From Gammaproteobacteria bacterium (GTDB lineage Bacteria > Pseudomonadota > Gammaproteobacteria > Chromatiales > Chromatiaceae), in the NCBI GenBank assembly GCA_018812525.1, contig JAHJDE010000159.1, forward strand, positions 1-46,266: a stretch of DNA of 46,266 nucleotides, given 5' to 3'. The position numbers were made by a program, and so were the translations under genes. Below, one piece after another: positions 31,076 through 46,182 of this stretch; the stretch's first letter is position 1; each line of letters begins with the position of its first letter. A model generated the notes under the pieces. The model saw only the letters and a list, made by a program, of their open reading frames with translations, did not search any database and was not told where the DNA came from.

Positions 31076-33244
31076 GTGCAAAAAATAAACAGTTTTAACC
31101 CTGTCCCTATCGAAATCAAGATATACGTGCCTAACAAACCCGTCCATGCCGCGAACCACCGCCGCCTTCTGGTGCTCGCCGGAGATGCAAAGTGGGCACG
31201 TCAGGCAGCCGCCCAATGCATCGCCCCCTTTGCCCACCGGCTTTGGATAGGTGATGGCGCCCCCGAGGGGGATGAGTGCCTTCCGTCCCACAAGGCCCGG
31301 CTCTGGCTCGGACGCGAACTGGATGCCTTGGCCTTCAATGCCCACGCCGGTTTCGACCCTGATGCCTTCGGTGCGGTAATCGGAACAGTGAGGGGAGGCG
31401 GCCTTGTCCTGCTGCTCACCCCGCCACTGGCCCATTGGCCCGACTACCCCGATCCCGACAGGGCGCGTATCGCCCAGCATCCTCACGGCTTGCAGGGGGT
31501 GTCTGGGCGTTTTTTGCGACGCCTGGCCAACATCATCCGCTATGACAGCGAATTGACCCTGGTAGAGCAGGGCGATGCCGTTCCCTCACTTGGGGTTCCG
31601 TTTCCTCCACCGGCTGACCCGGAAAAGCGGATCTCCCTGACACCGGATCAGCAACAGGCGGTTGATGCCTTGGTGCGGGTGGCAACGGGCCACGGCCGCA
31701 GACCCCTGGTCCTGATGTCCGATCGCGGGCGGGGCAAAAGTACAGCCCTCGGCATGGCGGCAGCCCAGCTTTTGTTGCTACGGTCAGGGAGCCGGATCCT
31801 GGTCACGGCACCCCGTCCGGATGCCGTACAGGCATTGTTCGATCAAGCCCGGCGGCTGTTGCCGGCCAGCGCCCGGCATGGCCACTGCCTGCTTGAAGGG
31901 GCCGGCGAAATCTCTTACCGGGCGCCCGACGCGCTTCTGCACGAAGCCGCGCACTGCGATCTGCTGCTGGTTGACGAGGCAGCGGCCATTCCCTTGCCCC
32001 TGCTGGAGCAGTTCCTGACCAAATACAATCGTGTCGCCTTCGCAACCACCGAGCATGGCTATGAGGGGGCCGGGCGCGGATTCAGCCTCCGTTTCCCGAC
32101 CCTCTTGCAAAGGCTGACGCCCCATTGGCGAAGAATGCGGCTGACCACCCCGGTCCGCTGGGCGGAAGGGGACCCGGTAGAGGACTTCGGCTTCCATGCC
32201 CTGCTCCTGAATGCCGAGGCTGCCGCAGATTCCGACCTGTCGGAGGCGACTCCAGAAGCCTGCTTACTTGAACGCCTCGATAGGGACCGGCTCGCCATGG
32301 ACGAAGGGCTGTTGTCGGAATTGTTTGGCCTGCTGGTCCAGGCCCATTACCAGACGCGTCCCTCAGACCTGCGTCATCTGCTGGACGGCCCCGATATCGC
32401 TATCTGGGTGCTGAGGCACCGGGACCATGTCGCAGCCGTCCTTCTGGCGGTGGATGAAGGGGGCTTCGAGGCCGGGCTTGCCAAGGCCATATGGCTGGGA
32501 CAGCGAAGGCCCCAGGGTCACCTCCTGGCGCAAACCCTCACGACGCATGCCGGCTTCAAAGAGGCGGCCGGGATGCGCTATTGCCGGATCATGCGCCTTG
32601 CCGTTCACCCCGCTATCCAACGACGGGGCTTCGGCTCCCGCCTGGTTGCTGCGCTGGTGGCGGACACCGAGCGCCGGGGGCGGGATTTCGTCGGCAGCAG
32701 CTTCGGTGCAACCGCCGGACTCCTGACCTTCTGGCGCCGGCTCGGTCTTGCCCCGGTACGCATTGGTACGCGTCGGGAAGCAGCCAGCGGCACCCACTCG
32801 GCGACCCTGCTGCGCCCCCTGTCGCCTAAGGCCCATGGATTGTTCGATCGCATGCGCCATCGCTTTCTGGAGTCCCTTCCCTATCTCCTGACCGATCCTC
32901 TCCAAGGGCTGGAGGCCGAGGTAGCCGCCAATTTGCTGGTCGGCACCGTTTTAGCCGGCGTCCTGGAAGAACAGGACCGGCTCGATCTGGAGGCCTTTGT
33001 CCAGGGGCGCCGTGACTATGCCGGAGCCTACCTTGCCCTGTTGCGCCTCGGTTACCTGCATGCGGCCGGAGGTGCCCCCCTTGCGCAGATAAAGCCACTA
33101 CTCATCAAGGTATTACAGGGCCATGCCTGGGATGATGCGGCCACCCTGCTTGGACTGACCGGCCGCAAAGGGGTGAATGAGGCCTTACGGCAGGCCGCTG
33201 GATCGCTTCTAGTAGACCCGAAATCACCCCGTTTTCCTGTATGA
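31076..33244 (+). CDS. tmcA: tRNA(Met) cytidine acetyltransferase
   Basis: This 722-residue enzyme acetylates C34 of elongator tRNA-Met to give ac4C, using ATP and acetyl-CoA. Domain order fits: N-terminal DUF1726-like region (30-170), a helicase-like ATPase with Walker A SDRGRGKST (215-223) and Walker B LLLVDEAAAIP near 293-303, a GNAT domain (about 430-580, RIMRLAVHPAIQRRGFGSRL), and a C-terminal tRNA-binding domain. The start is a GTG with gagg 12 bases upstream, slightly long spacing. Close upstream insertion of a hairpin element may affect its expression. Confidence 0.92.
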   Translation: MQKINSFNPVPIEIKIYVPNKPVHAANHRRLLVLAGDAKWARQAAAQCIAPFAHRLWIGDGAPEGDECLPSHKARLWLGRELDALAFNAHAGFDPDAFGAVIGTVRGGGLVLLLTPPLAHWPDYPDPDRARIAQHPHGLQGVSGRFLRRLANIIRYDSELTLVEQGDAVPSLGVPFPPPADPEKRISLTPDQQQAVDALVRVATGHGRRPLVLMSDRGRGKSTALGMAAAQLLLLRSGSRILVTAPRPDAVQALFDQARRLLPASARHGHCLLEGAGEISYRAPDALLHEAAHCDLLLVDEAAAIPLPLLEQFLTKYNRVAFATTEHGYEGAGRGFSLRFPTLLQRLTPHWRRMRLTTPVRWAEGDPVEDFGFHALLLNAEAAADSDLSEATPEACLLERLDRDRLAMDEGLLSELFGLLVQAHYQTRPSDLRHLLDGPDIAIWVLRHRDHVAAVLLAVDEGGFEAGLAKAIWLGQRRPQGHLLAQTLTTHAGFKEAAGMRYCRIMRLAVHPAIQRRGFGSRLVAALVADTERRGRDFVGSSFGATAGLLTFWRRLGLAPVRIGTRREAASGTHSATLLRPLSPKAHGLFDRMRHRFLESLPYLLTDPLQGLEAEVAANLLVGTVLAGVLEEQDRLDLEAFVQGRRDYAGAYLALLRLGYLHAAGGAPLAQIKPLLIKVLQGHAWDDAATLLGLTGRKGVNEALRQAAGSLLVDPKSPRFPV

Positions 33245-33469: not shown

Positions 33470-34225
33470 ATGTCCGGACCCTTGGCCGGCAAGGTCGCAC
33501 TCATCACCGGGGCCGCACGCGGCATTGGTCGCGCGACTGCCCTGAAGCTGGCCTCGGCCGGTTGCGATATCCTGGCGAACTATTACAACAGCCACGAGGA
33601 GACCGAGTCCCTGTGCGGCGAGATCCGCGCCATGGGACGCAAGGCCGTTGCGGTCCAGGGCAGCGTCGGCATGCCCGACAGCGTGGACGAGATGTTCGCG
33701 GAGATTCGCAAGCACTTCGACCGGCTCGATATCCTCGTCAGCAACGCCGCCAGCGGCGTGCTCAAGCCAGCCATGGAGATGAAGCTCAAGCACTGGCGCT
33801 GGTGCATGGAGACCAACGCCTTCGCACTCAACCTGCTGGCGCAAGGTTCCGCCCCCCTGATGACCCAAGGAGGGCGCATCGTCGCCCTGTCGAGCCTGGG
33901 GGCCTATCGCGCCATCCCCTCCTATGGGTTCATCGGCGCCTCCAAGGCCGCCCTCGAGGCCCTTGCGCGCACCCTGGCCCAGGAGTTGGGACCAAAGGGT
34001 GTCCGTGTCAACGTAGTGAACGCCGGCGTAGTGGATACGGATGCCTTGAAGCACTTTCCCAACCGGGACCAACTTCTATCCGAGTTCTCCGAACGTACAC
34101 CGGCTGGCCCAATCCTGACTCCCCAGGACGTGGCCAACGCCATCTACCTGCTCTGTCTGCCAGAGGCGGAAATGATTAACGGGCATACGCTGTTCGTGGA
34201 CGGCGGCTTCGCCATTTCAGGATGA
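33470..34225 (+). CDS. fabL: FabL-type enoyl-ACP reductase (SDR family)
   Basis: This 251-residue SDR protein has the NAD(P)-binding GAARGIG (14-20) and the enoyl-reductase Tyr-x6-Lys pattern (Tyr152, Lys159 in SYGFIGASK) rather than the Tyr-x3-Lys of ketoreductases. Segments SNAASGVLKPAME, VVDTDALKHFPNRD and ERTPAG are strongly like Bacillus subtilis FabL (enoyl-ACP reductase III). It would reduce the trans-2-enoyl-ACP double bond, the last step of each elongation cycle. The ATG at 33470 is supported by gagg upstream. First gene of the cluster; seven bases before fabG. FabL is unusual in gammaproteobacteria, which normally use FabI or FabV. Confidence 0.8.
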   Translation: MSGPLAGKVALITGAARGIGRATALKLASAGCDILANYYNSHEETESLCGEIRAMGRKAVAVQGSVGMPDSVDEMFAEIRKHFDRLDILVSNAASGVLKPAMEMKLKHWRWCMETNAFALNLLAQGSAPLMTQGGRIVALSSLGAYRAIPSYGFIGASKAALEALARTLAQELGPKGVRVNVVNAGVVDTDALKHFPNRDQLLSEFSERTPAGPILTPQDVANAIYLLCLPEAEMINGHTLFVDGGFAISG

Positions 34226-34232
34226 TACGATC

Positions 34233-34991
34233 ATGACATTTGATTCAGGACTGAAAGACAAGGTCGCCCTGGTGACCGGCGGCAGCCGCGGCATCGGTCG
34301 CGCCATTGTAGAAACCCTGGCCGCCGACGGGGTGGACGTCACCTTCCTCTTCCGCGGCAATGCGGAGGCGGCCCGCGAAGTGACAGAGGCCGGCGCGGCG
34401 AAGGGCTGGCGGATCACGGCGGATCAGGTTGACGTAACCGATCCGGAGGCCTGCGAAGCGGCGGTCGAACGGCTGGCCGATCGCTGCGGGCGGATCGATA
34501 TCCTGGTGAACAACGCAGGGGTCATCCGTGATAATATTCTCGGCTTGTTGGCGCCGGACGATGTCCGCACCGTACTGGACACCAATGTCGGCGGCGTGTT
34601 CAATGTCACCCGCGCCGTGATACCACACATGATCTCCCAGCGCGCCGGACGGATCATCAATATCAGTTCCGTGTCGGGTGAGAAGGGCGGTCGAGGTCAG
34701 AGCAATTATGCCGCCAGCAAGGGGGCAATCAATGCCATGACCCGCGCCCTGGCAGTGGAGCTGGGCAAGCGCAAGATCCTGGTCAACGCGGTTGCGCCCG
34801 GCGTCATTGAGACGGAGATGTCCCAGCAGGTCAGGGACCTGGCGGGCGACGAGATCAAGTCACGCATCCTGTTGAAGCGCTACGGCCAGCCGGATGAGAT
34901 TGCCCACGCGGTGTGGTTCCTCGCATCGCGCTTCGCGAACTACATAACCGGCCAGGTGCTGAGCGTGGACGGCGGATTCAAGATGGAGTAA
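34233..34991 (+). CDS. fabG: 3-oxoacyl-ACP reductase (FabG)
   Basis: This 252-residue SDR has VTGGSRGIGRAI (14-25), NNAG (93-96), Ser145/146 and the Tyr-x3-Lys pair Tyr159-Lys163 in SNYAASKGA, the classical ketoreductase set, with the GFKM-type C-terminus. It reduces 3-oxoacyl-ACP with NADPH. It sits between the enoyl reductase and the ACP with gaps of 6-7 bp, so it probably serves this cluster rather than primary fatty-acid synthesis, for which another fabG would be expected beside fabD/acpP. Confidence 0.9.
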   Translation: MTFDSGLKDKVALVTGGSRGIGRAIVETLAADGVDVTFLFRGNAEAAREVTEAGAAKGWRITADQVDVTDPEACEAAVERLADRCGRIDILVNNAGVIRDNILGLLAPDDVRTVLDTNVGGVFNVTRAVIPHMISQRAGRIINISSVSGEKGGRGQSNYAASKGAINAMTRALAVELGKRKILVNAVAPGVIETEMSQQVRDLAGDEIKSRILLKRYGQPDEIAHAVWFLASRFANYITGQVLSVDGGFKME

Positions 34992-34997
34992 TTCACA

Positions 34998-35417
34998 ATG
35001 TCGAACCCAGAGATTACCGAAGAAGAGATCCAGGCCGTCTATCCGACGGTGGCCAAGACCATCGCCGATGCCCTCGGCATGGACGAGGACGAAGTCGAGT
35101 TGAAGCATTCCCTGATCGAGGATCTGGACGCCGAGTCCATTGATTTCCTCGATCTGGTCTTCCGCCTCGAACGCGCCTTCAAGATGAAGATCCCCCGCGG
35201 AAAGATCATCGAGGACGCGCGCGGCGACATGCCCGAATCCGAGTTCGAACAGAACGGCATGGTCACCGAGGCCGGCATGGCCCGCCTCAAGACCTTCCTC
35301 AACGAGCTCCCCGCGGATCGTTTTCCTTCGCCCCTCAAGGCTGCCGACATCCCACGCCTCTTCACCACCGAGACCTTCTGCAAGCTGGTGGTACGCGCGC
35401 AGAAGGACGCGGCCTGA
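34998..35417 (+). CDS. acyl carrier protein with C-terminal extension
   Basis: This 139-residue acidic protein. The ACP core covers residues 8-85, with the phosphopantetheine-attachment Ser47 in EDLDAESIDFLDLVFRLE and the KIPRGKIIEDA helix III/IV region. Normal ACPs are about 80 residues; this one has 50-60 further residues (PADRFPSPLKAADIPRLF, TTETFCKLV) of unknown role, which could dock partner enzymes. The ESIDFLD variant of the usual DSLD motif is typical of specialised lipid or polyketide ACPs. It lies six bases after fabG, and the cluster encodes its own holo-ACP synthase domain. Confidence 0.88.
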   Translation: MSNPEITEEEIQAVYPTVAKTIADALGMDEDEVELKHSLIEDLDAESIDFLDLVFRLERAFKMKIPRGKIIEDARGDMPESEFEQNGMVTEAGMARLKTFLNELPADRFPSPLKAADIPRLFTTETFCKLVVRAQKDAA

Positions 35418-35652
35418 CCGGGTCCTGAGAAACGCGGCCCATGGCGGAGCCTTATCCCGGAAATACGCGCTGCAAGCGCACGGTTGCTCCCTCTCCCTCT
35501 GGGAGAGATGGCCCGGCCCCGTGGCCGAGGCTTTTAGCCCCGGAACCGGACCATCTCTCCCTCATCCGGCCCTGCGGGCCACCTTCTCCCAGAGGGAGAA
35601 GGGAAGCGGCCATGGGTTCCTGGGTGGGGTTGGGGAGAGGGGACGATCACGG
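35418..35652. repeat. CTCCCTCTGGGAGAG-type intergenic repeat
   Basis: The gap inside the cluster is occupied by a repeat with inverted ends (ctccctctgggagag near 35490-35507 and ctcccagagggagaaggg near 35586-35603) around a GC-rich core. A shorter relative appears inside the MMPL exporter gene near 4035-4055. No gene is present; the repeat interrupts an otherwise tight operon without ending it, judging by the continuing gene order. Confidence 0.6.
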
Positions 35653-36537
35653 ATGAGGCAACATTTTCACCATTCGGGGGAGGGCGCCTCATCCGATGAT
35701 CGTTACAGCGCCTTCTCATTCGTCGACCGGATCGGTTCCCTTGAGCCGGGCATCAGCGCCACGGGCCAGTTCCAGATCCCAGCTGGGATCAACGGATTTC
35801 CCCCGAGCCTGGTTGCCGAGGCGATTGGCCAATTGGCCGCCTGGGTCTCCATAGACCGTCTCGACTATCGGTTCAGGCCGGTGGCGGGCATCGCCGCCGA
35901 GGTCCGGTTCCTGCGCCAGGTGCGCCCCGGCCAGTTGCTGGAACTGGCAGTGGAGATCGACAGTTGCAGCGAATCGGACGTGGCCTACAGCGGGCGGGCG
36001 TTGGTCGAAGGCGAGGTCGCCGTCGAACTCTTTCACTCCCTGGGACCCATGCTCCCCATGGTGGAGTTCGATGATCCTGCCGATGTGCGGGAGCGTTTCC
36101 GGCTCCTCTCTGGCGCTGGCGCCCCGGCGGGGCGTTTCCCCGGTGTGCCCGATATTGCACTCATCCCCTTCGAGCAGACGCCAGGCAAGGACCTCAGGGC
36201 CCGACTGCGTGTCCCCGAGGCCGCCCCCTTCTTCGGTGACCACTTCCCGCGCCGCCCGGTCTTTCCCGCTACCCTGTTGCTTAATACCCAGATCCTGGCC
36301 GCAACCAGACTGGCCCTTGAGTCGGATCATTGGCCTGCCGACACCCCCATCGGCGTCAAGCGGGTCCTCGACGTAAAGATGCGCTCCTTCATGCCCCCGG
36401 GGCAGGAGCTGGAGGTCCGGGTGGCCCTGGCATCGCCGGTGCAAGGCTTTGCCACCGCCCGTATGACTACCCAAATGGATGGCAAACGGGTGGCGCACGC
36501 CCTGGCCGAGATCGGCCCTTTAAATATCGGTATATGA
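35653..36537 (+). CDS. double-hotdog 3-hydroxyacyl-ACP dehydratase-like protein with split active site
   Basis: This 294-residue protein is made of two FabZ-like hotdog halves. In the N-terminal half the segment NGFPPSLVAEAIGQLAAW keeps the catalytic Glu (Glu56) but has Asn47 where FabZ has its His. The C-terminal half, GDHFPRRPVFPATLLLNTQ, keeps the catalytic His (His197) but has Asn211 at the Glu position. FabZ and FabA form each active site from His of one subunit and Glu/Asp of the other, so the fused pair could make one working site. The ATG at 35653 follows a purine-rich SD. Its last codons overlap the alternative start of the next gene (ATGA at 36534). Confidence 0.8.
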   Translation: MRQHFHHSGEGASSDDRYSAFSFVDRIGSLEPGISATGQFQIPAGINGFPPSLVAEAIGQLAAWVSIDRLDYRFRPVAGIAAEVRFLRQVRPGQLLELAVEIDSCSESDVAYSGRALVEGEVAVELFHSLGPMLPMVEFDDPADVRERFRLLSGAGAPAGRFPGVPDIALIPFEQTPGKDLRARLRVPEAAPFFGDHFPRRPVFPATLLLNTQILAATRLALESDHWPADTPIGVKRVLDVKMRSFMPPGQELEVRVALASPVQGFATARMTTQMDGKRVAHALAEIGPLNIGI

Positions 36538-36548
36538 GGAATGACTTC

Positions 36549-37862
36549 GTGACTGAGAGACGCCGTGTAGCGATCACTGGCCTAGGTATGGTCACCCCGG
36601 CGGGCAACGATGTTCCCAGCACCTGGTCAACCCTGCTGGCGGGACGCAGTCAGGTTGGCCCCATCAGCATTTTCGATGCTAGCGGCTTTTCCACCCGGAT
36701 TGCAGCCGAGGTGAAGGGCTTCGATGCCCTGGCGGCTATCGGTGACCGCCGGCTATTGAAATACGCACACCGTTCCCATCGATTCGGACTAGCCGCCGCC
36801 GAACAGGCCCTGATCGACGCCGGCATTCGACCCACCAGCGAGGATGCCCCCCGCTGGGGCTGCGTTGTAGGGGCAGGCATGATGAGTGCCGAGTTTCATG
36901 AACTCGACGGCATCCATCGCCACAGCAGCACCGAGGGCGAGCTGGATCCCCATAAGCTCCTGAGCGACGAAATCGCTCGCGACCCCATTGTCTTCTGCAC
37001 GACCCAAGAAGTGGCCGGGCTCTCCCTGCTGCTGAAGCGCTACGGCATCAAGGGCTATTCCTCATCGGTGCACACTGCCTGCGCCTCTGGCGGCCAGGCC
37101 GTCGGCACAGCACTGAAACTGATCCGGCGCGGCATCGCCGACCGGGTGCTGACGGGAGGCTTCGACTCCATGATCTCCCCCGTGGGCATCTCGGGCTTCT
37201 GCTTGCTGGGCGCCGTCTCTCCGGACAACGACAGCCCCGAGCACGCCAGCCGTCCCTTCGATCTGACCCGCAACGGCTTCGTCCTGGGCGAGGGCGCCGG
37301 TTTTCTGGTGCTGGAGGAGTGGGAATCGGCACGCCGGCGCGGTGCCCATATTTACGCCGAGCTGGCTGGCGACGGCAATTCGCTAAGCAGCTATCGCATC
37401 ACCGACTCGCCCCCTTCCGGGGACGGCCCCATCCAGGCCATGCGTCAGGCCCTGGCCGATGCGGGGGGCAGCCCTGATCAAGTGGACTATGTCAACGCCC
37501 ACGGCACCTCCACGCCCATGAACGACCGTAGCGAGAGCGCGGCCATCCAGCGGGTCTTCGGCGAACGGGCCGGCCAGGTCTCGGTGAGTTCCACCAAAAG
37601 CGTGATGGGCCACCTGATCGCTGCGGCAGGGGCCGTGGAGGCAGCGGTCTGTGCTTTGACCATCCGTAACGGCCTCATGCCGGTCAACGCCAACCTGGAA
37701 CAAAAGGACCCGGATTGCGACCTCAACATCGTTACCGGGACCCCGCGTTCTGGTCGCATCCGCCTCGCCATGTCCAACTCCCTGGGATTCGGTGGCTCCA
37801 ATAGCTGCCTGGTGTTCCGAAATCCCGAAGAGGTGGATGGCAGACCTGGTTCGCTGGACTAA
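36549..37862 (+). CDS. beta-ketoacyl-ACP synthase (FabF-like, catalytically complete)
   Basis: This 437-residue condensing enzyme starts at GTG 36549, chosen because gagga lies eight bases upstream; an in-frame ATG at 36534 overlaps the previous stop. The Cys-His-His triad is intact: Cys178 in VHTACASGG, His318 in NAHGTSTPMND and His355 in VMGHLIAAAGAVE. It ends with SLGFGGSN-type sequence. It would condense malonyl-ACP with the growing chain. It is immediately followed by a second, Cys-less ketosynthase homologue, an arrangement like KS/CLF pairs of type II polyketide and aryl polyene systems. Confidence 0.9.
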   Translation: MTERRRVAITGLGMVTPAGNDVPSTWSTLLAGRSQVGPISIFDASGFSTRIAAEVKGFDALAAIGDRRLLKYAHRSHRFGLAAAEQALIDAGIRPTSEDAPRWGCVVGAGMMSAEFHELDGIHRHSSTEGELDPHKLLSDEIARDPIVFCTTQEVAGLSLLLKRYGIKGYSSSVHTACASGGQAVGTALKLIRRGIADRVLTGGFDSMISPVGISGFCLLGAVSPDNDSPEHASRPFDLTRNGFVLGEGAGFLVLEEWESARRRGAHIYAELAGDGNSLSSYRITDSPPSGDGPIQAMRQALADAGGSPDQVDYVNAHGTSTPMNDRSESAAIQRVFGERAGQVSVSSTKSVMGHLIAAAGAVEAAVCALTIRNGLMPVNANLEQKDPDCDLNIVTGTPRSGRIRLAMSNSLGFGGSNSCLVFRNPEEVDGRPGSLD

Positions 37863-37887
37863 TCCAACATCGCTATTGCGGAGAAGA

Positions 37888-39162
37888 ATGGTGGGCAAAG
37901 AGAAAATCGTCATCACAGGGACCGGTGCTGTCTGCGCGGCGGGCAGGGAACCAGTGGAAATCTTCGAGCATGCCAAGGGGGGCCAATCGGCCATCGGTCC
38001 CATCGACCGCTGGGATGCGACCGACTGGCCCGTCCGCTTCGCGGGTGAGATCAAGGGCATGACGGCGCGCGATCTGGTGCCTGAGCGCAAGACCCACAAG
38101 TTCATTCGCCATACGGACATGTTGGGACTCTATGCCGCCAACGCCGCCATCGCCCAGTCAGGCCTAACCAGGTTTCGGGACGGGCTGAATGAGGAGGCAG
38201 CGGTTCAATACAACGACCGCACAGGGATCTACGTGGGCTCTGGCGGCGGTAATTACGAGAACCAGTACGACTACTTCCCCCTCATGGACACTGCCCAGGG
38301 CAGCCTGGAGGCCTTTGGCCGGGAGCTCTCCAATCACGTCAACCCCATGTGGTTGTTACGCACCCTGCCCAACAATGTCCTCTGCCATGTGGGCATACAG
38401 CACAACCTCAAGGGACCGAACGCCTGCATCACCTGCCATGCCACCAGCGGCATGCAGGCCATCATCGAGGCCAGCGAGGCCCTCCGTGCCGGCGAGGCGG
38501 AGCGTGCGGTTGCAATCGGACACGACGCGCCCATCGAACCCCAGAAGCTCTACTACTACCAGCAGATGGGCCTTATGGCTACCGAGGCCATTCGGCCCTT
38601 CGACAGCGCCCGCAACGGCACCCTGTTCGGTGAAGGTGCCGGCTCCCTGATGCTGGAGACCGAGAATTCCGCGGTTACTCGCGGCGCCACTATTCTCGGT
38701 GAAGTACTCGGAAGCGGCAGTGGCTCGGATGCTGAAGGATTATTGGCATTGCGACCGGACGGCGAGGGTCTGGCCAGCGCCATGACCGCTGCCCTGAAGG
38801 ATGCGAATCTGAAACCCGATCAAGTGGGCATGATTGTGGCCCACGCCAATGGCACCCCCCAATCGGATGCCTCTGAAGTAGCAGCGATCCGTCGTGTTTT
38901 CGGCGACGATTCACCTCCGATCACTGGCTTCAAATGGGCCTTTGGCCACCTTATCGCCGCCTCTGGCATTGTGGAAACCGCCGTGGCTTTACAGGCCCTC
39001 GCCGCCGGCCAAGCGCCGGGGATACCGACCCTGCGTGAGCTCGACCCGGCATTCGCCGGCCTGTCGGTGTCGACTCAGGCGCAAACCCCGCGAAGTGACG
39101 TGGCCATGGTCATTTCCCGTGGCTTCGGCGGCACCAATTGCGTACTGCTGATCCGTGCGTGA
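37888..39162 (+). CDS. ketosynthase homologue lacking the nucleophilic Cys (chain-length-factor-like)
   Basis: This 424-residue protein has the thiolase fold pattern of FabF, but its active-site block reads ITCHATSGMQA. Aligned with E. coli FabF TACTSG, the nucleophile is Ala185. His319 (VAHANGTPQSD) and His354 (FGHLIAAS) are retained, so it could decarboxylate malonyl-ACP or act as the non-condensing subunit of a heterodimer. Cys183 two residues earlier is unlikely to substitute. The start ATG at 37888 has ggag upstream. Its stop overlaps the GTG start of the next gene. Confidence 0.85.
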   Translation: MVGKEKIVITGTGAVCAAGREPVEIFEHAKGGQSAIGPIDRWDATDWPVRFAGEIKGMTARDLVPERKTHKFIRHTDMLGLYAANAAIAQSGLTRFRDGLNEEAAVQYNDRTGIYVGSGGGNYENQYDYFPLMDTAQGSLEAFGRELSNHVNPMWLLRTLPNNVLCHVGIQHNLKGPNACITCHATSGMQAIIEASEALRAGEAERAVAIGHDAPIEPQKLYYYQQMGLMATEAIRPFDSARNGTLFGEGAGSLMLETENSAVTRGATILGEVLGSGSGSDAEGLLALRPDGEGLASAMTAALKDANLKPDQVGMIVAHANGTPQSDASEVAAIRRVFGDDSPPITGFKWAFGHLIAASGIVETAVALQALAAGQAPGIPTLRELDPAFAGLSVSTQAQTPRSDVAMVISRGFGGTNCVLLIRA

Positions 39163-40361
39163 ACGGGAACCCGAGTCACTGTCGTTGCGGTATCGACAGT
39201 GTCGAGATCGCGCGCATGGAACGCCTGTTGCGCGATACAACCGATGCTGATTTGTCGCGGCTTTTCAGCGCCCAGGAGCTGAAGGATGCCGGCGAGGGTC
39301 CGGGCCGCGCGGCCCGTCTTGCCGGCCGCTTCGCCGCCAAGGAGGCCTGCCTCAAGTTGTTTCCGCGCGAAACCACGCTTGAGACCATCACCGCCGCCGA
39401 TTTTGCCGTGGAACGCGACAATTACGGCGCACCTCGCGTCCATTGCAGTGAAAGCGCAGCCATCGTGCTCGGACGCAACCGCATCGCCCGTATCGAGATC
39501 TCCCTCACGCACGACCGTTCCACTGCATCAGCCATCGCCCTGGCAATGCCCGACAGTATTCGGGTCCCCCTGGCGGGCCGGATCATTGATCGCCTGCTCC
39601 CCTTCCGCCGGACAGTGATACTGGAAAACCTTCGGCGCGTCTTTGGCGGCCGTATTTCCGAAGACGAGATCCTTCGCTTGGCCCAGGCCCACTACGGCCA
39701 TCTCTGGCGCATGATCGTCGAGTTCCTGACTTACCCCCTGATGTCCGCCGCCAAGCGTTCCAAGATCACCCGCGTGGAAAATCTTGAGGCCCTGCACTCT
39801 GCCCTGAATAAGGGTAAGGGCGTACTGGTACTGACCGGGCACTTCGGTAACTTCGAGATCGGGACAGCGGGGGGAATAAACCGCTTTCCCGAAGCGAGGG
39901 GCCGTTTCTATTTTCTGCGCCGACCCTTCAAGCCGCGCTGGTTGGATGACTATGTAACCAAGCGTTTCCTTCAGGCCGGTTTCGGCATACTCCCCAAGGA
40001 AGGCTCACTCGATTGGCTGATGGAACGGCTGGCGGCCAATGACCTGGTGGTATTTCCTTTTGATCAACATGCCAGCGGACGTGATGGCATCCGGGTGGAT
40101 TTTTTCGGCCACGGTGCCGGCACCTTCCGTAGCCTGGCCCTCATCGCCCAGTCCAGCGGCGCTCCGGTGGTACCCGCCGCTTGCTGGCGCGAACCAGACG
40201 GAAGCCATGTCCTGCGCTTCGAGGATGCCCTGCCCCACATCCATTGCGAAGACTTCGGCGAGGAGATCCGCCGCAATACCCGCGCCTACAACAAGGCGTT
40301 GGAACTGCTGGTGGCACGCCACCCCGAGCAATGGTGGTGGGTCCACCGCCGCTGGAAGTGA
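39159..40361 (+). CDS. fusion of holo-ACP synthase and LpxL/HtrB-like lysophospholipid acyltransferase
   Basis: This 400-residue protein starts at GTG 39159, overlapping the previous stop (GTGA). Residues 10-130 are AcpS-like: GIDSVEIARME with Asp13, RFAAKEACLKLF with Glu62 for metal binding, and SLTHDRSTASAIALA. Residues 135-400 are a lipid A-type acyltransferase domain, with ENLRRVF, the HX4E catalytic motif GHFGNFE (His228, Glu233), FPFDQHASG near 300 and a WWWVHRRWK end. The usual N-terminal membrane helix of LpxL is replaced by the AcpS domain. One polypeptide thus activates the ACP and transfers its acyl product to a lipid acceptor. I know of no common fusion of this type. Confidence 0.85.
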   Translation: MNGNPSHCRCGIDSVEIARMERLLRDTTDADLSRLFSAQELKDAGEGPGRAARLAGRFAAKEACLKLFPRETTLETITAADFAVERDNYGAPRVHCSESAAIVLGRNRIARIEISLTHDRSTASAIALAMPDSIRVPLAGRIIDRLLPFRRTVILENLRRVFGGRISEDEILRLAQAHYGHLWRMIVEFLTYPLMSAAKRSKITRVENLEALHSALNKGKGVLVLTGHFGNFEIGTAGGINRFPEARGRFYFLRRPFKPRWLDDYVTKRFLQAGFGILPKEGSLDWLMERLAANDLVVFPFDQHASGRDGIRVDFFGHGAGTFRSLALIAQSSGAPVVPAACWREPDGSHVLRFEDALPHIHCEDFGEEIRRNTRAYNKALELLVARHPEQWWWVHRRWK

Positions 40362-40369
40362 GGTATTCG

Positions 40370-41407
40370 ATGACGCGACGCCTGCCAGCCGAATGGGAGC
40401 CTCAGGACGGGGTCATGATGACCTGGCCCCACGACGGCGGGGACTGGGCCCCCTGTCTGCAAGAGGTGGAACCGGTCTTCGTCCGAATCGCCGTCGAGAT
40501 CGCCAAGCGCGAGCGGTTGCTTGCCGTCTGCCGCGATGAACCCCATCGGCGGCATGTCCAGGATTTATTGGATGGTGCCGGTGTTGATCCAGATCGCGTC
40601 AGCCTCCCCTGCATTCCCTCCGACGATACCTGGGCTCGCGACCACGGCCCCATTACGGTAATCGAGGATGGCCAGCCCCAACTCCGCGACTTTATTTTCA
40701 ACGGTTGGGGCGGGAAGTTCGAGGCCGGCCTCGATACCCAAATCACCTCAGCCTTACATGCGCAAGGCGTCTTCGGCGACTGGCCCCTGCAAGACATCAA
40801 GTTGGTGCTGGAGGGCGGTGGCATCGAGACCGATGGACAGGGTACCCTGCTCGTTACCCGCCGTTGTCTGCTGAGCGAGACCCGTAACCCCGGCATGATC
40901 CAGGAACGGATGGAAACCCTGCTAACCCAGTATCTGGGCGTAAAGCGTTTCCTCTGGATCAATGAGGGCGGCATGGAGGGAGACGACACCGATGGCCACA
41001 TCGATACCCTGGTTCGCTTCAGCGATCCGGGAACCCTGCTCTACCAGGCTTGCGACGACCTTTCAGACCCCAATTTCGGGGGACTGAGGGCCATGGAGGC
41101 CGAGTTGCAGACCCTACGGGATGCCGTGGCCAACCCCTACCGGCTGATCCCACTCCCCTCGACCCGACCCATCCGCAATGCCGAGGGGGACCAACTCCCC
41201 GCCAGCTACGCCAACTTCCTCATTGTCAACGGCGCCGTGTTGGCCCCCATCTACCGGGAACCGGCGGATGCCATCGTCCTGGAGCGGCTGGCAGCCGCCT
41301 TCCCGGCCCGCGAGATCGTCCCCATCGACTGCCGCCCCCTGATCCTCCAACACGGTAGCCTCCACTGCGTCACCATGCAGTTGCCCAAAGGGGTGTTGGC
41401 GCCCTAG
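40370..41407 (+). CDS. aguA: agmatine deiminase
   Basis: This 345-residue protein of the peptidyl-arginine-deiminase-like family hydrolyses agmatine to N-carbamoylputrescine and ammonia. Key segments: PAEWEPQDGVMMTWPH (N-terminus), WARDHGP near 88-94, LEGGGIETDGQGTLL near 147-161, MEGDDTDGHIDT with His210, and the nucleophile Cys333 in HGSLHCVTMQ. The ATG at 40370 has gaggt seven bases upstream and lies eight bases after the acyltransferase fusion, so it may be co-transcribed with the lipid cluster. No N-carbamoylputrescine amidase (aguB) follows, although the two are commonly adjacent. Confidence 0.92.
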   Translation: MTRRLPAEWEPQDGVMMTWPHDGGDWAPCLQEVEPVFVRIAVEIAKRERLLAVCRDEPHRRHVQDLLDGAGVDPDRVSLPCIPSDDTWARDHGPITVIEDGQPQLRDFIFNGWGGKFEAGLDTQITSALHAQGVFGDWPLQDIKLVLEGGGIETDGQGTLLVTRRCLLSETRNPGMIQERMETLLTQYLGVKRFLWINEGGMEGDDTDGHIDTLVRFSDPGTLLYQACDDLSDPNFGGLRAMEAELQTLRDAVANPYRLIPLPSTRPIRNAEGDQLPASYANFLIVNGAVLAPIYREPADAIVLERLAAAFPAREIVPIDCRPLILQHGSLHCVTMQLPKGVLAP

Positions 41408-44410: not shown

Positions 44411-45253
44411 TCAATATACGCGGATCGCTATATCAAAGGCAGTTTCACTGATCTCGTTGATATTGTTGTTAGTGATTCCAAGCGCGCAGGCTGTTTTGGT
44501 CTTAAATCCGACATCTAAGCTGCTGCTGTTATTTGTTATGGTGGCACTACTGCTGAGTGAGCTTATTCCGAATAAATACGCAATCGTTCCCATGCTGTTC
44601 GTAGCAGAACCGGTTCCTAAAGAGAGATCCAGTTGTGTAAGGTATACGGCCAAGGTATTCGATACTTCTTCGCCATAATTTGCAATACCGCCCATACTGT
44701 TTAACTTGTTTGTGAAGGTGCCCAATCCAGCGACACTATCCCCACATGCAAATGAAGATTCATAATCATTTCCATCCACATACACCGTTTTGTCCTTGGT
44801 CCAGCATTTTGTGCCCGTACCACTTCCACTGGAAAAAGCTTGTAGCGTTCTGTTAAAGGTGTGCTGCGTACGAATCTGGATCTGGGGAGCAATCACTACA
44901 TAGGCATGGGTATAGGTTCCATTTGGCGGTCGGCTGAAGGTGCCGCTCAGGGCGCTGCCGACGCCGTCAGTAATGGTTACCTTGCTACCCGTCGAGTTTT
45001 CGAACACGATTGAACACATGGAGAGATCGGCGGGCCGTCCAGTTGCAGGGGTGCCAGGCCTGCTTGTGCAGACGCCGACCCGGTAGACGGTCATGGTATA
45101 TTGATCTGGCTGGGTGTCACAATTGGCTGTATTGGTGATGGCTCCATTCGTGTATATACAGGCATCGGCCGCCATGGCCGATTGGCCAATTTGCAGCGAG
45201 GATATTAGAGCTATAAGACCGAAGAGAGAAAAGGAACGATTCCACATTTTCAT
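44411..45253 (-). CDS. secreted protein of unknown function downstream of an inverse autotransporter
   Basis: This 280-residue protein has a signal peptide (SFSLFGLIALISSLQIGQSAM, cleavage near residue 28 before ADACIY). The ATG at 45253 has ggag seven bases upstream. The mature part is Thr/Ser/Asn/Gly-rich and beta-strand-like, with Cys pairs (CIYTNG, NCDTQ, VCTSR, MCSIV, KCWTKD, FACGD) probably forming disulfides. Base composition is clearly lower in GC than the rest of the window, suggesting transfer. I do not recognise the family. It may be a surface or pilin-like partner of the outer-membrane protein encoded 14 bp upstream. Confidence 0.7.
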   Translation of the reverse strand: MKMWNRSFSLFGLIALISSLQIGQSAMAADACIYTNGAITNTANCDTQPDQYTMTVYRVGVCTSRPGTPATGRPADLSMCSIVFENSTGSKVTITDGVGSALSGTFSRPPNGTYTHAYVVIAPQIQIRTQHTFNRTLQAFSSGSGTGTKCWTKDKTVYVDGNDYESSFACGDSVAGLGTFTNKLNSMGGIANYGEEVSNTLAVYLTQLDLSLGTGSATNSMGTIAYLFGISSLSSSATITNNSSSLDVGFKTKTACALGITNNNINEISETAFDIAIRVY

Positions 45254-45267
45254 ACGAAACTCCATGT

Positions 45268-46182
45268 TTAGAACCCAGAAACCGAAACAGCAAACGGCGC
45301 AAGCGTCGAACGAGTGGCCTTGACGATACGGTTCTCACGCCGCACCTTCTCAAAGCGTCGATCCTCCATGCTCTCCATCTGCCAGGCGGTGTCGATGATG
45401 CGCGGCATCAGGGTCGATTTGGGACGGTCCCCGCCAAAGGTGTAGGTCAGCATGACGAAGTTATCGTTACTGCGGTTGTCGTTGTACTGGGTCTGTCCGA
45501 TCTCCGCCGAGACCCCCGGCAATAAGGCCCCGGTGACGCTGTAGGTCTGTCCTTGTAGATCGGCTGCACCATCCACGCCATCCCAGTTGAAGGTCTTGGC
45601 CCGCACATGGGCTGTGGGCACATAGGGCACCGCCACTGCCAACTCCAAGTCATAGCCGCCGAGCGCCTTCTCTTCCGTATTGTTTCCGGCGTCTTTCCAG
45701 CCACTCAGCCCTTTGTACCAGTTGGCATTGATCTCTCCTACGGTAGAGCGGATCTCGCCACCGATACTCATGCGCTGATGGTCATTGGGAAACTCATGGT
45801 CATAAAAGGCATTCAGCCCCAGCAACAGCCTGTTATTGCTGACCAAGCGACGATAACCGAGGCCCAGATTCAACGTAGTGGTGTCATCCTGATGAAACGC
45901 ACTCCCCTGCATGAAGGTCGAATGTTGCAGATCGGCACTCTCCGTCAACGGACGCACCAGCAAGACGTTATAGACCGGGTCCCCGTTCTCAATGCCCGTA
46001 ATCCCGATCTCTGTCACCCCGCGTTCGGCAGAGAGCAGATTACGCAGCCAACTCTCGGCGGCCTGATTAACGGGCGCGGCGATCAGGGATTTGACAGCGG
46101 GTGTTGGATCGTCGGCAGAGAAGGCGGCGGGTAACAGCGCGAGTGATAAGGCGCCGAAGAGTAGTGGTTGATGGAAATTCAC
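45268..46182 (-). CDS. inverse autotransporter beta-domain protein without passenger
   Basis: This 304-residue protein has a signal peptide (LLFGALSLALLPAAFSA) and an intimin/invasin-type beta-domain. Family features: NQAAESWLRNLLS near the N-terminus, TTTLNLGLGYRRL, LLLGLNAFYDHEFPNDHQRMSIGGEIRS, INANWYKGLSGW, and repeated amphipathic strands. The start is a GTG with aaggagg just upstream. Intimins continue with Ig-like passenger domains; here the protein stops about 50 residues after the barrel. It could export or anchor the secreted protein that follows. Confidence 0.8.
   Translation of the reverse strand: MNFHQPLLFGALSLALLPAAFSADDPTPAVKSLIAAPVNQAAESWLRNLLSAERGVTEIGITGIENGDPVYNVLLVRPLTESADLQHSTFMQGSAFHQDDTTTLNLGLGYRRLVSNNRLLLGLNAFYDHEFPNDHQRMSIGGEIRSTVGEINANWYKGLSGWKDAGNNTEEKALGGYDLELAVAVPYVPTAHVRAKTFNWDGVDGAADLQGQTYSVTGALLPGVSAEIGQTQYNDNRSNDNFVMLTYTFGGDRPKSTLMPRIIDTAWQMESMEDRRFEKVRRENRIVKATRSTLAPFAVSVSGF

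What the first reader, a model, noticed from the sequence alone, without database searches (positions are those of the whole stretch)
33470..41407. Self-contained secondary fatty-acid synthase with its own ACP, ACP activator and acyltransferase
Seen: consecutive genes for a FabL-like enoyl reductase, FabG, an extended ACP, a double-hotdog dehydratase, an intact ketosynthase, a Cys-less ketosynthase, and an AcpS-LPLAT fusion, most with overlaps or gaps below 30 bp. Known: aryl polyene and ladderane-type clusters also pair KS/CLF, ACP, FabG and dehydratase, but aryl polyene loci lack an enoyl reductase, and ladderane loci carry radical SAM and desaturase genes, which are absent here. Inferred: the locus builds a saturated or specially modified acyl chain on a dedicated ACP and attaches it to a lipid (lipid A, phospholipid or amino-lipid). 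I do not recognise this exact set as a described system.
Basis: partly seen in the sequence, partly recalled or inferred. Interest (0 to 1): 0.78.

Follow-up and report, generated by a model that had tools for sequence, protein, structure and literature searches.

The report
Second fatty-acid line for outer membrane
A block of seven genes, found in the same order in bacteria of several phyla and in a shorter form in Legionella, encodes a second fatty-acid assembly line that probably makes long fatty chains for lipid A, the anchor of the outer membrane.

Summary
All seven genes are present as described: FabL-type enoyl reductase, FabG, an ACP with an insert of about 48 residues, double-hotdog dehydratase, intact KS, Cys-to-Ala KS, and AcpS-LPLAT fusion. 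The span's last gene (PAD_porph) is a passenger seen only in this genus.

The set is a real unit: of 42 non-Legionella-type loci among the best 80, 27 hold all eight domains in one order on one strand, 10 are cut by contig ends, 3 lack a detectable AcpS and 2 are incomplete. Legionella-type loci lack FabG and AcpS.

It has a similar parts list, including a Cys-less KS, but no window protein tested reaches its family cut-offs. In two genomes taken as Legionellaceae the cluster's acyltransferase is the only PF03279 protein found, and papers state that Legionella makes VLCFA lipid A.

Chain length, acceptor and role are inferred. New variant of a known kind.

The parts
33470..34225 (+). SDR1, FabL-type enoyl-ACP reductase, YX6K active site
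   Evidence: NF005975 350.7 bits, cut-off 328; best solved relative 3oic, enoyl-ACP reductase; YX6K in 69 of 69 rows with SDR1
34233..34991 (+). SDR2, FabG-type 3-ketoacyl-ACP reductase
   Evidence: TIGR01830 266 bits, under its cut-off of 297.75; over the cut-off of NF009466 (247 vs 222); YX3K in 45 of 45 rows with SDR2
34998..35417 (+). Acyl carrier protein, 139 aa, with about 48 extra residues before the last helix
   Evidence: PF00550 31.7 bits, cut-off 20.8; alignment; AlphaFold2 mean pLDDT 92.5
35653..36537 (+). Double-hotdog 3-hydroxyacyl-ACP dehydratase; Glu in the N half, His in the C half
   Evidence: PF07977; conserved residues over 77 rows; AlphaFold2 model and fold search
36534..37862 (+). 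KS1, ketosynthase with catalytic Cys (37080-37082)
   Evidence: PF00109 and PF02801; Cys in 71 of 71 rows with a residue there
37888..39162 (+). KS2, ketosynthase with Ala (38440-38442) in place of Cys; both His kept; putative chain-length-factor partner
   Evidence: PF00109 and PF02801; column counts
39159..40361 (+). AcpS (39186-39536) fused to LpxL-family acyltransferase (39546-40358)
   Evidence: PF01648 37.9 and PF03279 134.1 bits, both over cut-off; places
40370..41407 (+). PAD_porph / agmatine-deiminase-like gene, 8 bases downstream; probably a passenger, not part of the system
   Evidence: PF04371; among the loci searched only in L033 and L048, which are one sister genome
35489..35602 (.). 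Inverted repeats in the ACP-dehydratase gap, REP-like by eye; not thought functional in the pathway
   Evidence: Repeat search; core motif 3 times in the window against 0.17 expected

Best explanation
The locus encodes a second, dedicated type II fatty-acid elongation cycle. The AcpS half of the fusion charges the cluster's own ACP with phosphopantetheine. KS1, probably paired with the Cys-less KS2 as a KS/chain-length-factor heterodimer, condenses malonyl units (malonyl-ACP from the cell's ordinary FabD) onto an acyl primer that is either handed over from the primary FAS or made by decarboxylation of malonyl-ACP on KS2. FabG reduces the keto group, the double-hotdog enzyme removes water, the FabL-type reductase saturates the double bond, and the cycle repeats to give a long, saturated, probably very-long chain. 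The LpxL-family half of the fusion moves the chain from the ACP to lipid A as a secondary acyl group. By analogy with rhizobial and Legionella VLCFA lipid A it would stiffen the outer membrane. Shown here: gene content, order, active-site residues, genome context. Inferred: KS1-KS2 pairing, primer, chain length, lipid A as acceptor, role.
For: Full reductive cycle in one block; YX6K in 69 of 69 SDR1 rows against YX3K in 45 of 45 FabG rows. Block conserved in order in 27 of 42 loci. Same functional parts, including a Cys-less KS, as the rhizobial VLCFA cluster, in which fabF2XL and adhlA2XL mutants lose VLCFA from lipid A (PMC11901934, passages). LPLAT is PF03279, and in the tree its family lies with rhizobial LpxXL (and one G060 protein, L157) on one side of a supported branch, apart from gammaproteobacterial LpxL (96/92). 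Own genome has LpxC and only two PF03279 proteins, the fusion and one that groups away from LpxL. In G480 and G714 the only PF03279 protein found is the cluster's LPLAT; both share the family code of G612, which I take as Legionella, and two papers state that Legionella makes VLCFA lipid A (passages).
Against: No lipid was measured and no chain length can be read from sequence. PF03279 proteins also serve other products. G060, G468 and G612 carry other PF03279 proteins besides the cluster's, so the LPLAT is not always the sole candidate. KS2 keeps Cys in 9 of 69 rows, all of them Verrucomicrobiota loci, so a chain-length-factor role may not hold throughout. Nine betaproteobacterial and verrucomicrobial loci have a condensation-domain-like gene upstream, a possible second transferase. 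Window proteins fall below all four rhizobial VLCFA family cut-offs. LpxC was not searched for in G480 or G714.
Confidence: 0.57

Rival explanations
1. The same elongation cycle makes a long chain, but the LPLAT (or another transferase) places it on a different envelope lipid, such as an amino lipid, phospholipid or glycolipid.
For: An LPLAT also sits in the aryl polyene cluster of E. coli CFT073 (annotation). NCBIfam lists a phosphatidylinositol mannoside acyltransferase among the fusion's matches (69.2 bits, under its cut-off of 209). Nine loci add a condensation-domain-like gene and five an alpha/beta-hydrolase-like lipoprotein upstream.
Against: The LPLAT family groups with LpxXL; in G480 and G714 it is the only PF03279 protein found; the own genome lacks an LpxL-like member of that family while it has LpxC.
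Confidence: 0.27
2. It is a spare ordinary fatty-acid synthase that feeds phospholipid synthesis, for example under conditions that block the primary enoyl reductase.
For: All steps are ordinary FAS II chemistry, and KS1 is close to FabF (TIGR03150 443 bits; 322.6 bits against the own FabF). FabL is known as a second enoyl reductase in Bacillus subtilis (recalled).
Against: A separate FabG-AcpP-FabF set lies on contig C17. The cluster has its own ACP with a conserved insert, an AcpS, a Cys-less KS partner and KS clades apart from FabF.
Confidence: 0.08
3. It is a pigment or polyketide cluster of the aryl polyene kind.
For: KS/CLF-like pair, ACP, FabG, dehydratase and LPLAT occur in both.
Against: An enoyl reductase is present here, and no AMP ligase, MMPL exporter, LolA-like, thioesterase or glycosyltransferase gene is among the cluster genes, unlike the CFT073 locus. 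KS1 and KS2 do not group with the two CFT073 KSs, whose branches are long.
Confidence: 0.03

Closest known systems
Rhizobial acpXL-fabZXL-fabF2XL-fabF1XL-adhlA2XL-lpxXL cluster (very-long-chain fatty acid of lipid A)
   Same: Dedicated ACP with extra residues before the last helix, dehydratase, intact KS, Cys-less KS, LPLAT of the lipid A family, all in one block (PMC11901934 and PMC5613085, passages).
   Different: No window protein tested reaches the four NCBIfam cut-offs of that cluster. The dehydratase is double instead of single. The reductase is SDR/FabL instead of MDR. FabG and AcpS are built in, AcpS is fused to LPLAT, and KS order is reversed. KS1, KS2, FabF1XL and FabF2XL form separate groups.
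Legionella-type version of the same block (L090-L119, L121, L123)
   Same: ACP, dehydratase, KS1, KS2 and LPLAT in the same order in 27 of 32 loci, the other 5 cut by contig ends; a FabL-like gene upstream in most.
   Different: No FabG and no AcpS in the block.
Aryl polyene cluster (E. coli CFT073; ApeO-ApeC)
   Same: KS with a KS-like partner, ACP, FabG, dehydratase, LPLAT (PMC8358021, passages).
   Different: Enoyl reductase present here; CFT073 partner genes absent; [quoted passage not shown]
Primary type II fatty-acid synthase of the same genome
   Same: Same chemistry; KS1 matches the own FabF at 322.6 bits.
   Different: Separate locus on contig C17, separate KS groups, ordinary ACP.

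Membership tests
Rhizobial acpXL-lpxXL VLCFA cluster | AcpXL-family ACP (NF005079, cut-off 83 bits) | tested here: not met
   Window ACP 38.6 bits; a rhizobial ACP scores 188.6
Rhizobial acpXL-lpxXL VLCFA cluster | FabF1XL-family KS with Cys (NF005076, cut-off 629) | tested here: not met
   KS1 319.8 bits; rhizobial 760.9
Rhizobial acpXL-lpxXL VLCFA cluster | FabF2XL-family Cys-less KS (NF005084, cut-off 320) | tested here: not met
   KS2 53.5 bits; rhizobial 629
Rhizobial acpXL-lpxXL VLCFA cluster | LpxXL-family acyltransferase (NF005120, cut-off 273) | tested here: not met
   Window fusion 81.9 bits, G060 fusion 105, rhizobial 497.9
Rhizobial acpXL-lpxXL VLCFA cluster | Block of ACP, dehydratase, intact KS, Cys-less KS and LPLAT | tested here: met
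   the Cys-less state is absent in 9 of 69 KS2 rows
Rhizobial acpXL-lpxXL VLCFA cluster | Very-long-chain fatty acid on lipid A | not testable with these tools
   Needs lipid analysis
FabL enoyl-ACP reductase | NF005975 over its cut-off, YX6K active site | tested here: met
   350.7 vs 328 bits; YX6K
Lipid A secondary acyltransferase (LpxL, PF03279) | PF03279 over cut-off and the GHxGN[FW]E motif | tested here: met
   134.1 vs 22.3 bits; motif GHFGNFE in the window
Lipid A secondary acyltransferase (LpxL, PF03279) | Over the LpxL/LpxP model TIGR02207 (cut-off 297.8) | tested here: not met
   69.8 bits
Aryl polyene cluster | No enoyl reductase; AMP ligase, exporter and thioesterase partners | tested here: not met
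   compared with the CFT073 annotation
Ladderane cluster | Radical SAM and desaturase genes in the cluster (recalled) | tested here: not met
   None among the nine genes scanned with Pfam; the rest of the window was not scanned

The most novel reading that the evidence does not exclude
The locus is a second, horizontally spreading route to very-long-chain lipid A, built from enzymes outside the rhizobial acpXL families. It would include the genes for the very long chains of Legionella lipid A, and it predicts membrane-spanning lipid A in Verrucomicrobiota, freshwater Synechococcus, NC10 and many betaproteobacteria, where I know of none described (recalled).
Probability: 0.45. Interest if true: 0.75.

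Novelty: new variant of a known kind. Interest (0 to 1): 0.6.

Why it matters
Very-long-chain lipid A is described for rhizobia, Brucella and Legionella and is tied to membrane strength (passages). If this cluster makes such chains, it supplies candidate genes for the Legionella chains and predicts this membrane design in free-living bacteria of other phyla, testable in one cultured isolate. It also offers three unusual parts: an ACP with a structured insert, a dehydratase whose one active site appears shared by two fused hotdogs, and an ACP activator fused to a lipid acyltransferase.

Tried and rejected
Aryl polyene and ladderane readings: rejected on the enoyl reductase and missing partner genes. 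PAD_porph gene as part of the system: rejected, since among the loci searched only the sister genome has it. KS2 as the orthologue of rhizobial FabF2XL: left open. A first tree put the KS2 rows and six FabF2XL rows on one side of a starred branch (99/96); with the long rows left out the join fell to 80/64. Distant ACP relatives L122, L124, L125 and L127 share the ACP insert, but the other core genes are missing or out of order; ten neighbours of L125 gave no matching set. L168 (G668) shows only the ACP.

Limits and dropped rows. Phylum, class and relatives searches are samples. The order search held one genome. In one search the L131 Cys-less row was lost because its name was reused. One search left out seven rows (own_PKS, two APE, two L126, L131, L133). 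The LPLAT tree has 31 rows; of the fifteen stretches fetched, L154, L159, L160 and L161 gave no ORF that matched and are not in it, so the third PF03279 protein of G001 (52 bits) was not placed. The first motif patterns for the KS columns failed and were replaced by alignment columns. In one search the KS1 query was translated in a wrong frame; it was corrected from then on. Model coordinates could not be read, so the Glu-His distance in the dehydratase was not measured. The ACP fold search gave no match at E <= 0.001.

Literature. Paper searches with listings: (no hit). Passages seen of five papers: PMC11901934, PMC13200437, PMC5613085, PMC8358021, PMC3098273. None describes this gene set in what I saw. 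Against novelty: PMC5613085 says, citing Ardissone 2011, that a five-gene cluster (ACP, two FabF, FabZ, acyltransferase) is found in all bacteria that make VLCFA lipid A; that paper was not read, and it may already count the Legionella block.
Full report
WHAT IS THERE. TmcA lies upstream (31076-33244) and a PAD_porph gene downstream (40370-41407).

ACTIVE SITES. SDR1 is over the FabL cut-off (350.7 vs 328); its best solved relative is 3oic, an enoyl-ACP reductase. All 69 rows with SDR1 show YX6K and all 45 rows with SDR2 show YX3K (one sister genome is counted twice in each). KS1 keeps Cys in 71 of 71 rows with a residue there. KS2 has Ala in the window; over 69 rows the position reads A 32, S 11, T 11, C 9, G 4, E 1, P 1, the last two from the distant loci L122 and L125; each of the two His is kept in 65 of 69. 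The nine Cys rows are all Verrucomicrobiota loci by their titles, so the loss is not universal. In the dehydratase the N-half Glu is kept in 76 of 77 rows (one X), the C-half His in 75 of 75 rows with a residue, no row has the N-half His, and the C-half Glu is kept in 30 of 75. I read this as one composite active site per fused pair. AlphaFold2 gives a confident two-half model (pLDDT 90.7) whose best PDB match is the dehydratase-region chain of a mammalian FAS model, followed mostly by double-hotdog thioesterases, at 9-16% identity ('dehydratase region' recalled). The ACP has about 48 residues more than AcpP before the last helix (model pLDDT 92.5). By profile, 2kw2, a specialised ACP (RPA2022 of Rhodopseudomonas palustris), is second among solved structures at 48.4 bits, behind an ordinary ACP at 52.7. 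By fold no match reached E <= 0.001, and among the 50 shown 2kw2 has the highest TM-score by query length (0.51). That RPA2022 is an AcpXL is recalled.

A CONSERVED, PATCHY UNIT. The extended ACP is found at high score in 4 of 74 genomes searched: the own genome, one of the same genus, and G060 and G069 in other families. It is in 1 of 398 sampled phylum genomes at E <= 1e-12, the own one, and in 9 of 369 sampled class genomes at E <= 1e-15, one of which (G668) has the ACP without the cluster nearby. Of the 42 loci L048-L089, 27 hold all eight domains in one order on one strand with AcpS and LPLAT fused, 3 lack a detectable AcpS (L062, L067, L070), 10 are cut by contig ends, 2 are incomplete (L069, L080). 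Of 32 Legionella-type loci (L090-L119, L121, L123), none shows FabG or AcpS in the block; ACP-DH-KS1-KS2-LPLAT is in order in 27 and 5 are cut. The other six of the 80 are L120, with all genes but no detected AcpS; L126, partial; and L122, L124, L125 and L127, with the ACP but not the cluster. In the tree, KS1 and KS2 each split into the same two sets: Legionella and kin with the Acidobacteriota locus, and a set mixing Gamma, Beta, Verrucomicrobiota, Cyanobacteriota and NC10 (L126 apart). This fits transfer of the block as a unit.

COMPARISON WITH THE RHIZOBIAL VLCFA CLUSTER. Four of them match NF005079, NF005084, NF005076 and NF005120 over cut-off. The order fits acpXL-fabZXL-fabF2XL-fabF1XL-adhlA2XL-lpxXL of Agrobacterium fabrum, where fabF2XL and adhlA2XL mutants lose VLCFA from lipid A (PMC11901934, passages); Bradyrhizobium ORS278 lacks adhA2XL (PMC5613085, passages). 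Window ACP, KS2, KS1 and fusion score 38.6, 53.5, 319.8 and 81.9 bits against cut-offs of 83, 320, 629 and 273. So the window is not a member of those families, although it works like them. KS1, KS2, primary FabF, FabF1XL and FabF2XL form five separate groups once long rows are left out.

WHY LIPID A. The LPLAT is PF03279. In a 31-row tree its family lies with LpxXL and one G060 protein on one side of a supported branch (96/92). The own genome has LpxC and two PF03279 matches, the fusion at 135 bits and one at 98 bits. The 98-bit protein groups with the second kind of PF03279 protein of its relatives, and no LpxL-like one was found. Of 17 same-family genomes outside the genus at 95% completeness or more, 16 have a match of 180 bits or more; G017 does not (my count). 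G480 (100% complete) and G714 (99%) have one PF03279 match each, and it is the cluster's LPLAT. Both share the family code of G612, whose contig length (2,776,985) equals that of the Legionella tucsonensis record of L112, and the G480 ACP is 86% identical to that of L. moravica; I take all three as Legionellaceae. Two papers say that Legionella makes VLCFA lipid A (passages). Against a general takeover: G060, G468 and G612 carry other PF03279 proteins too. G069 and G536 have one each, on another contig, which I could not assign.

THE ACP ACTIVATOR. Of ten genomes searched with the AcpS model TIGR00516, the two of this genus match, below the model's cut-off (49.3 and 43.4 vs 59.8), and the match is the fusion; the other eight, including G060 with its own fusion, show none. 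So the model misses diverged AcpS domains. With PF01648 the own genome has the fusion and one weaker match on contig C7 (27.5 bits), which may be an Sfp-type enzyme for the primary ACP (inference).

ADDED GENES. In nine betaproteobacterial or verrucomicrobial loci a related gene lies upstream; of three members scanned, two are over the Pfam Condensation cut-off and one is under it. In five loci an alpha/beta-hydrolase-like lipoprotein lies upstream (by eye; no Pfam match). The block thus has lineage-specific additions, and the final product may differ between lineages.

LITERATURE. PMC13200437 lists L. pneumophila lpg0359 as an ACP and lpg0361/lpg0362 as FabB, with no lipid A role in the passages seen. 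No listing or 92 names this gene set, and one search found nothing. PMC5613085 cites Ardissone 2011 for a five-gene cluster in all VLCFA lipid A makers; I did not read that paper, and it may bear on Legionella.

VERDICT. Observation confirmed. Best read as a dedicated long-chain FAS for lipid A (0.57). New variant of a known kind, close in logic to the rhizobial VLCFA cluster but built from other protein families.

Noticed in passing
L052, L053, L057, L058, L059, L061, L065, L070, L075, upstream of SDR1: A condensation-domain-like gene recurs upstream of the block in nine loci; two of three scanned members are over the PF00668 cut-off.
   Followed up: partly
L049, L051, L059, L070, L075, upstream of SDR1: A lipoprotein of alpha/beta-hydrolase type (GHSQGG, lipobox by eye) without Pfam match recurs upstream.
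   Followed up: partly
L057, L062, L063, L070, L071, L072, L073, L075, L079 (KS2): In these nine Verrucomicrobiota loci KS2 has Cys at the catalytic position, often with Gln instead of His before it; a regain or a different role is possible.
   Followed up: no
L122, L124, L125, L127: ACPs with the same insert and an AES[IL]DFLD motif lie in Myxococcota/Deltaproteobacteria-type loci without the rest of the cluster; their partners are unknown.
   Followed up: partly
window 35489-35602: REP-like inverted repeats in the only long gap of the operon.
   Followed up: partly
own genome, C47:2954-3760 and its relatives: The genus of the window seems to lack an LpxL-like PF03279 protein that 16 of 17 near-complete family members have.
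   Followed up: partly
window 44411-45265 and 45268-46182, - strand: Two neighbouring genes, the larger resembling an inverse-autotransporter beta-barrel by eye (resemblance recalled).
   Followed up: no
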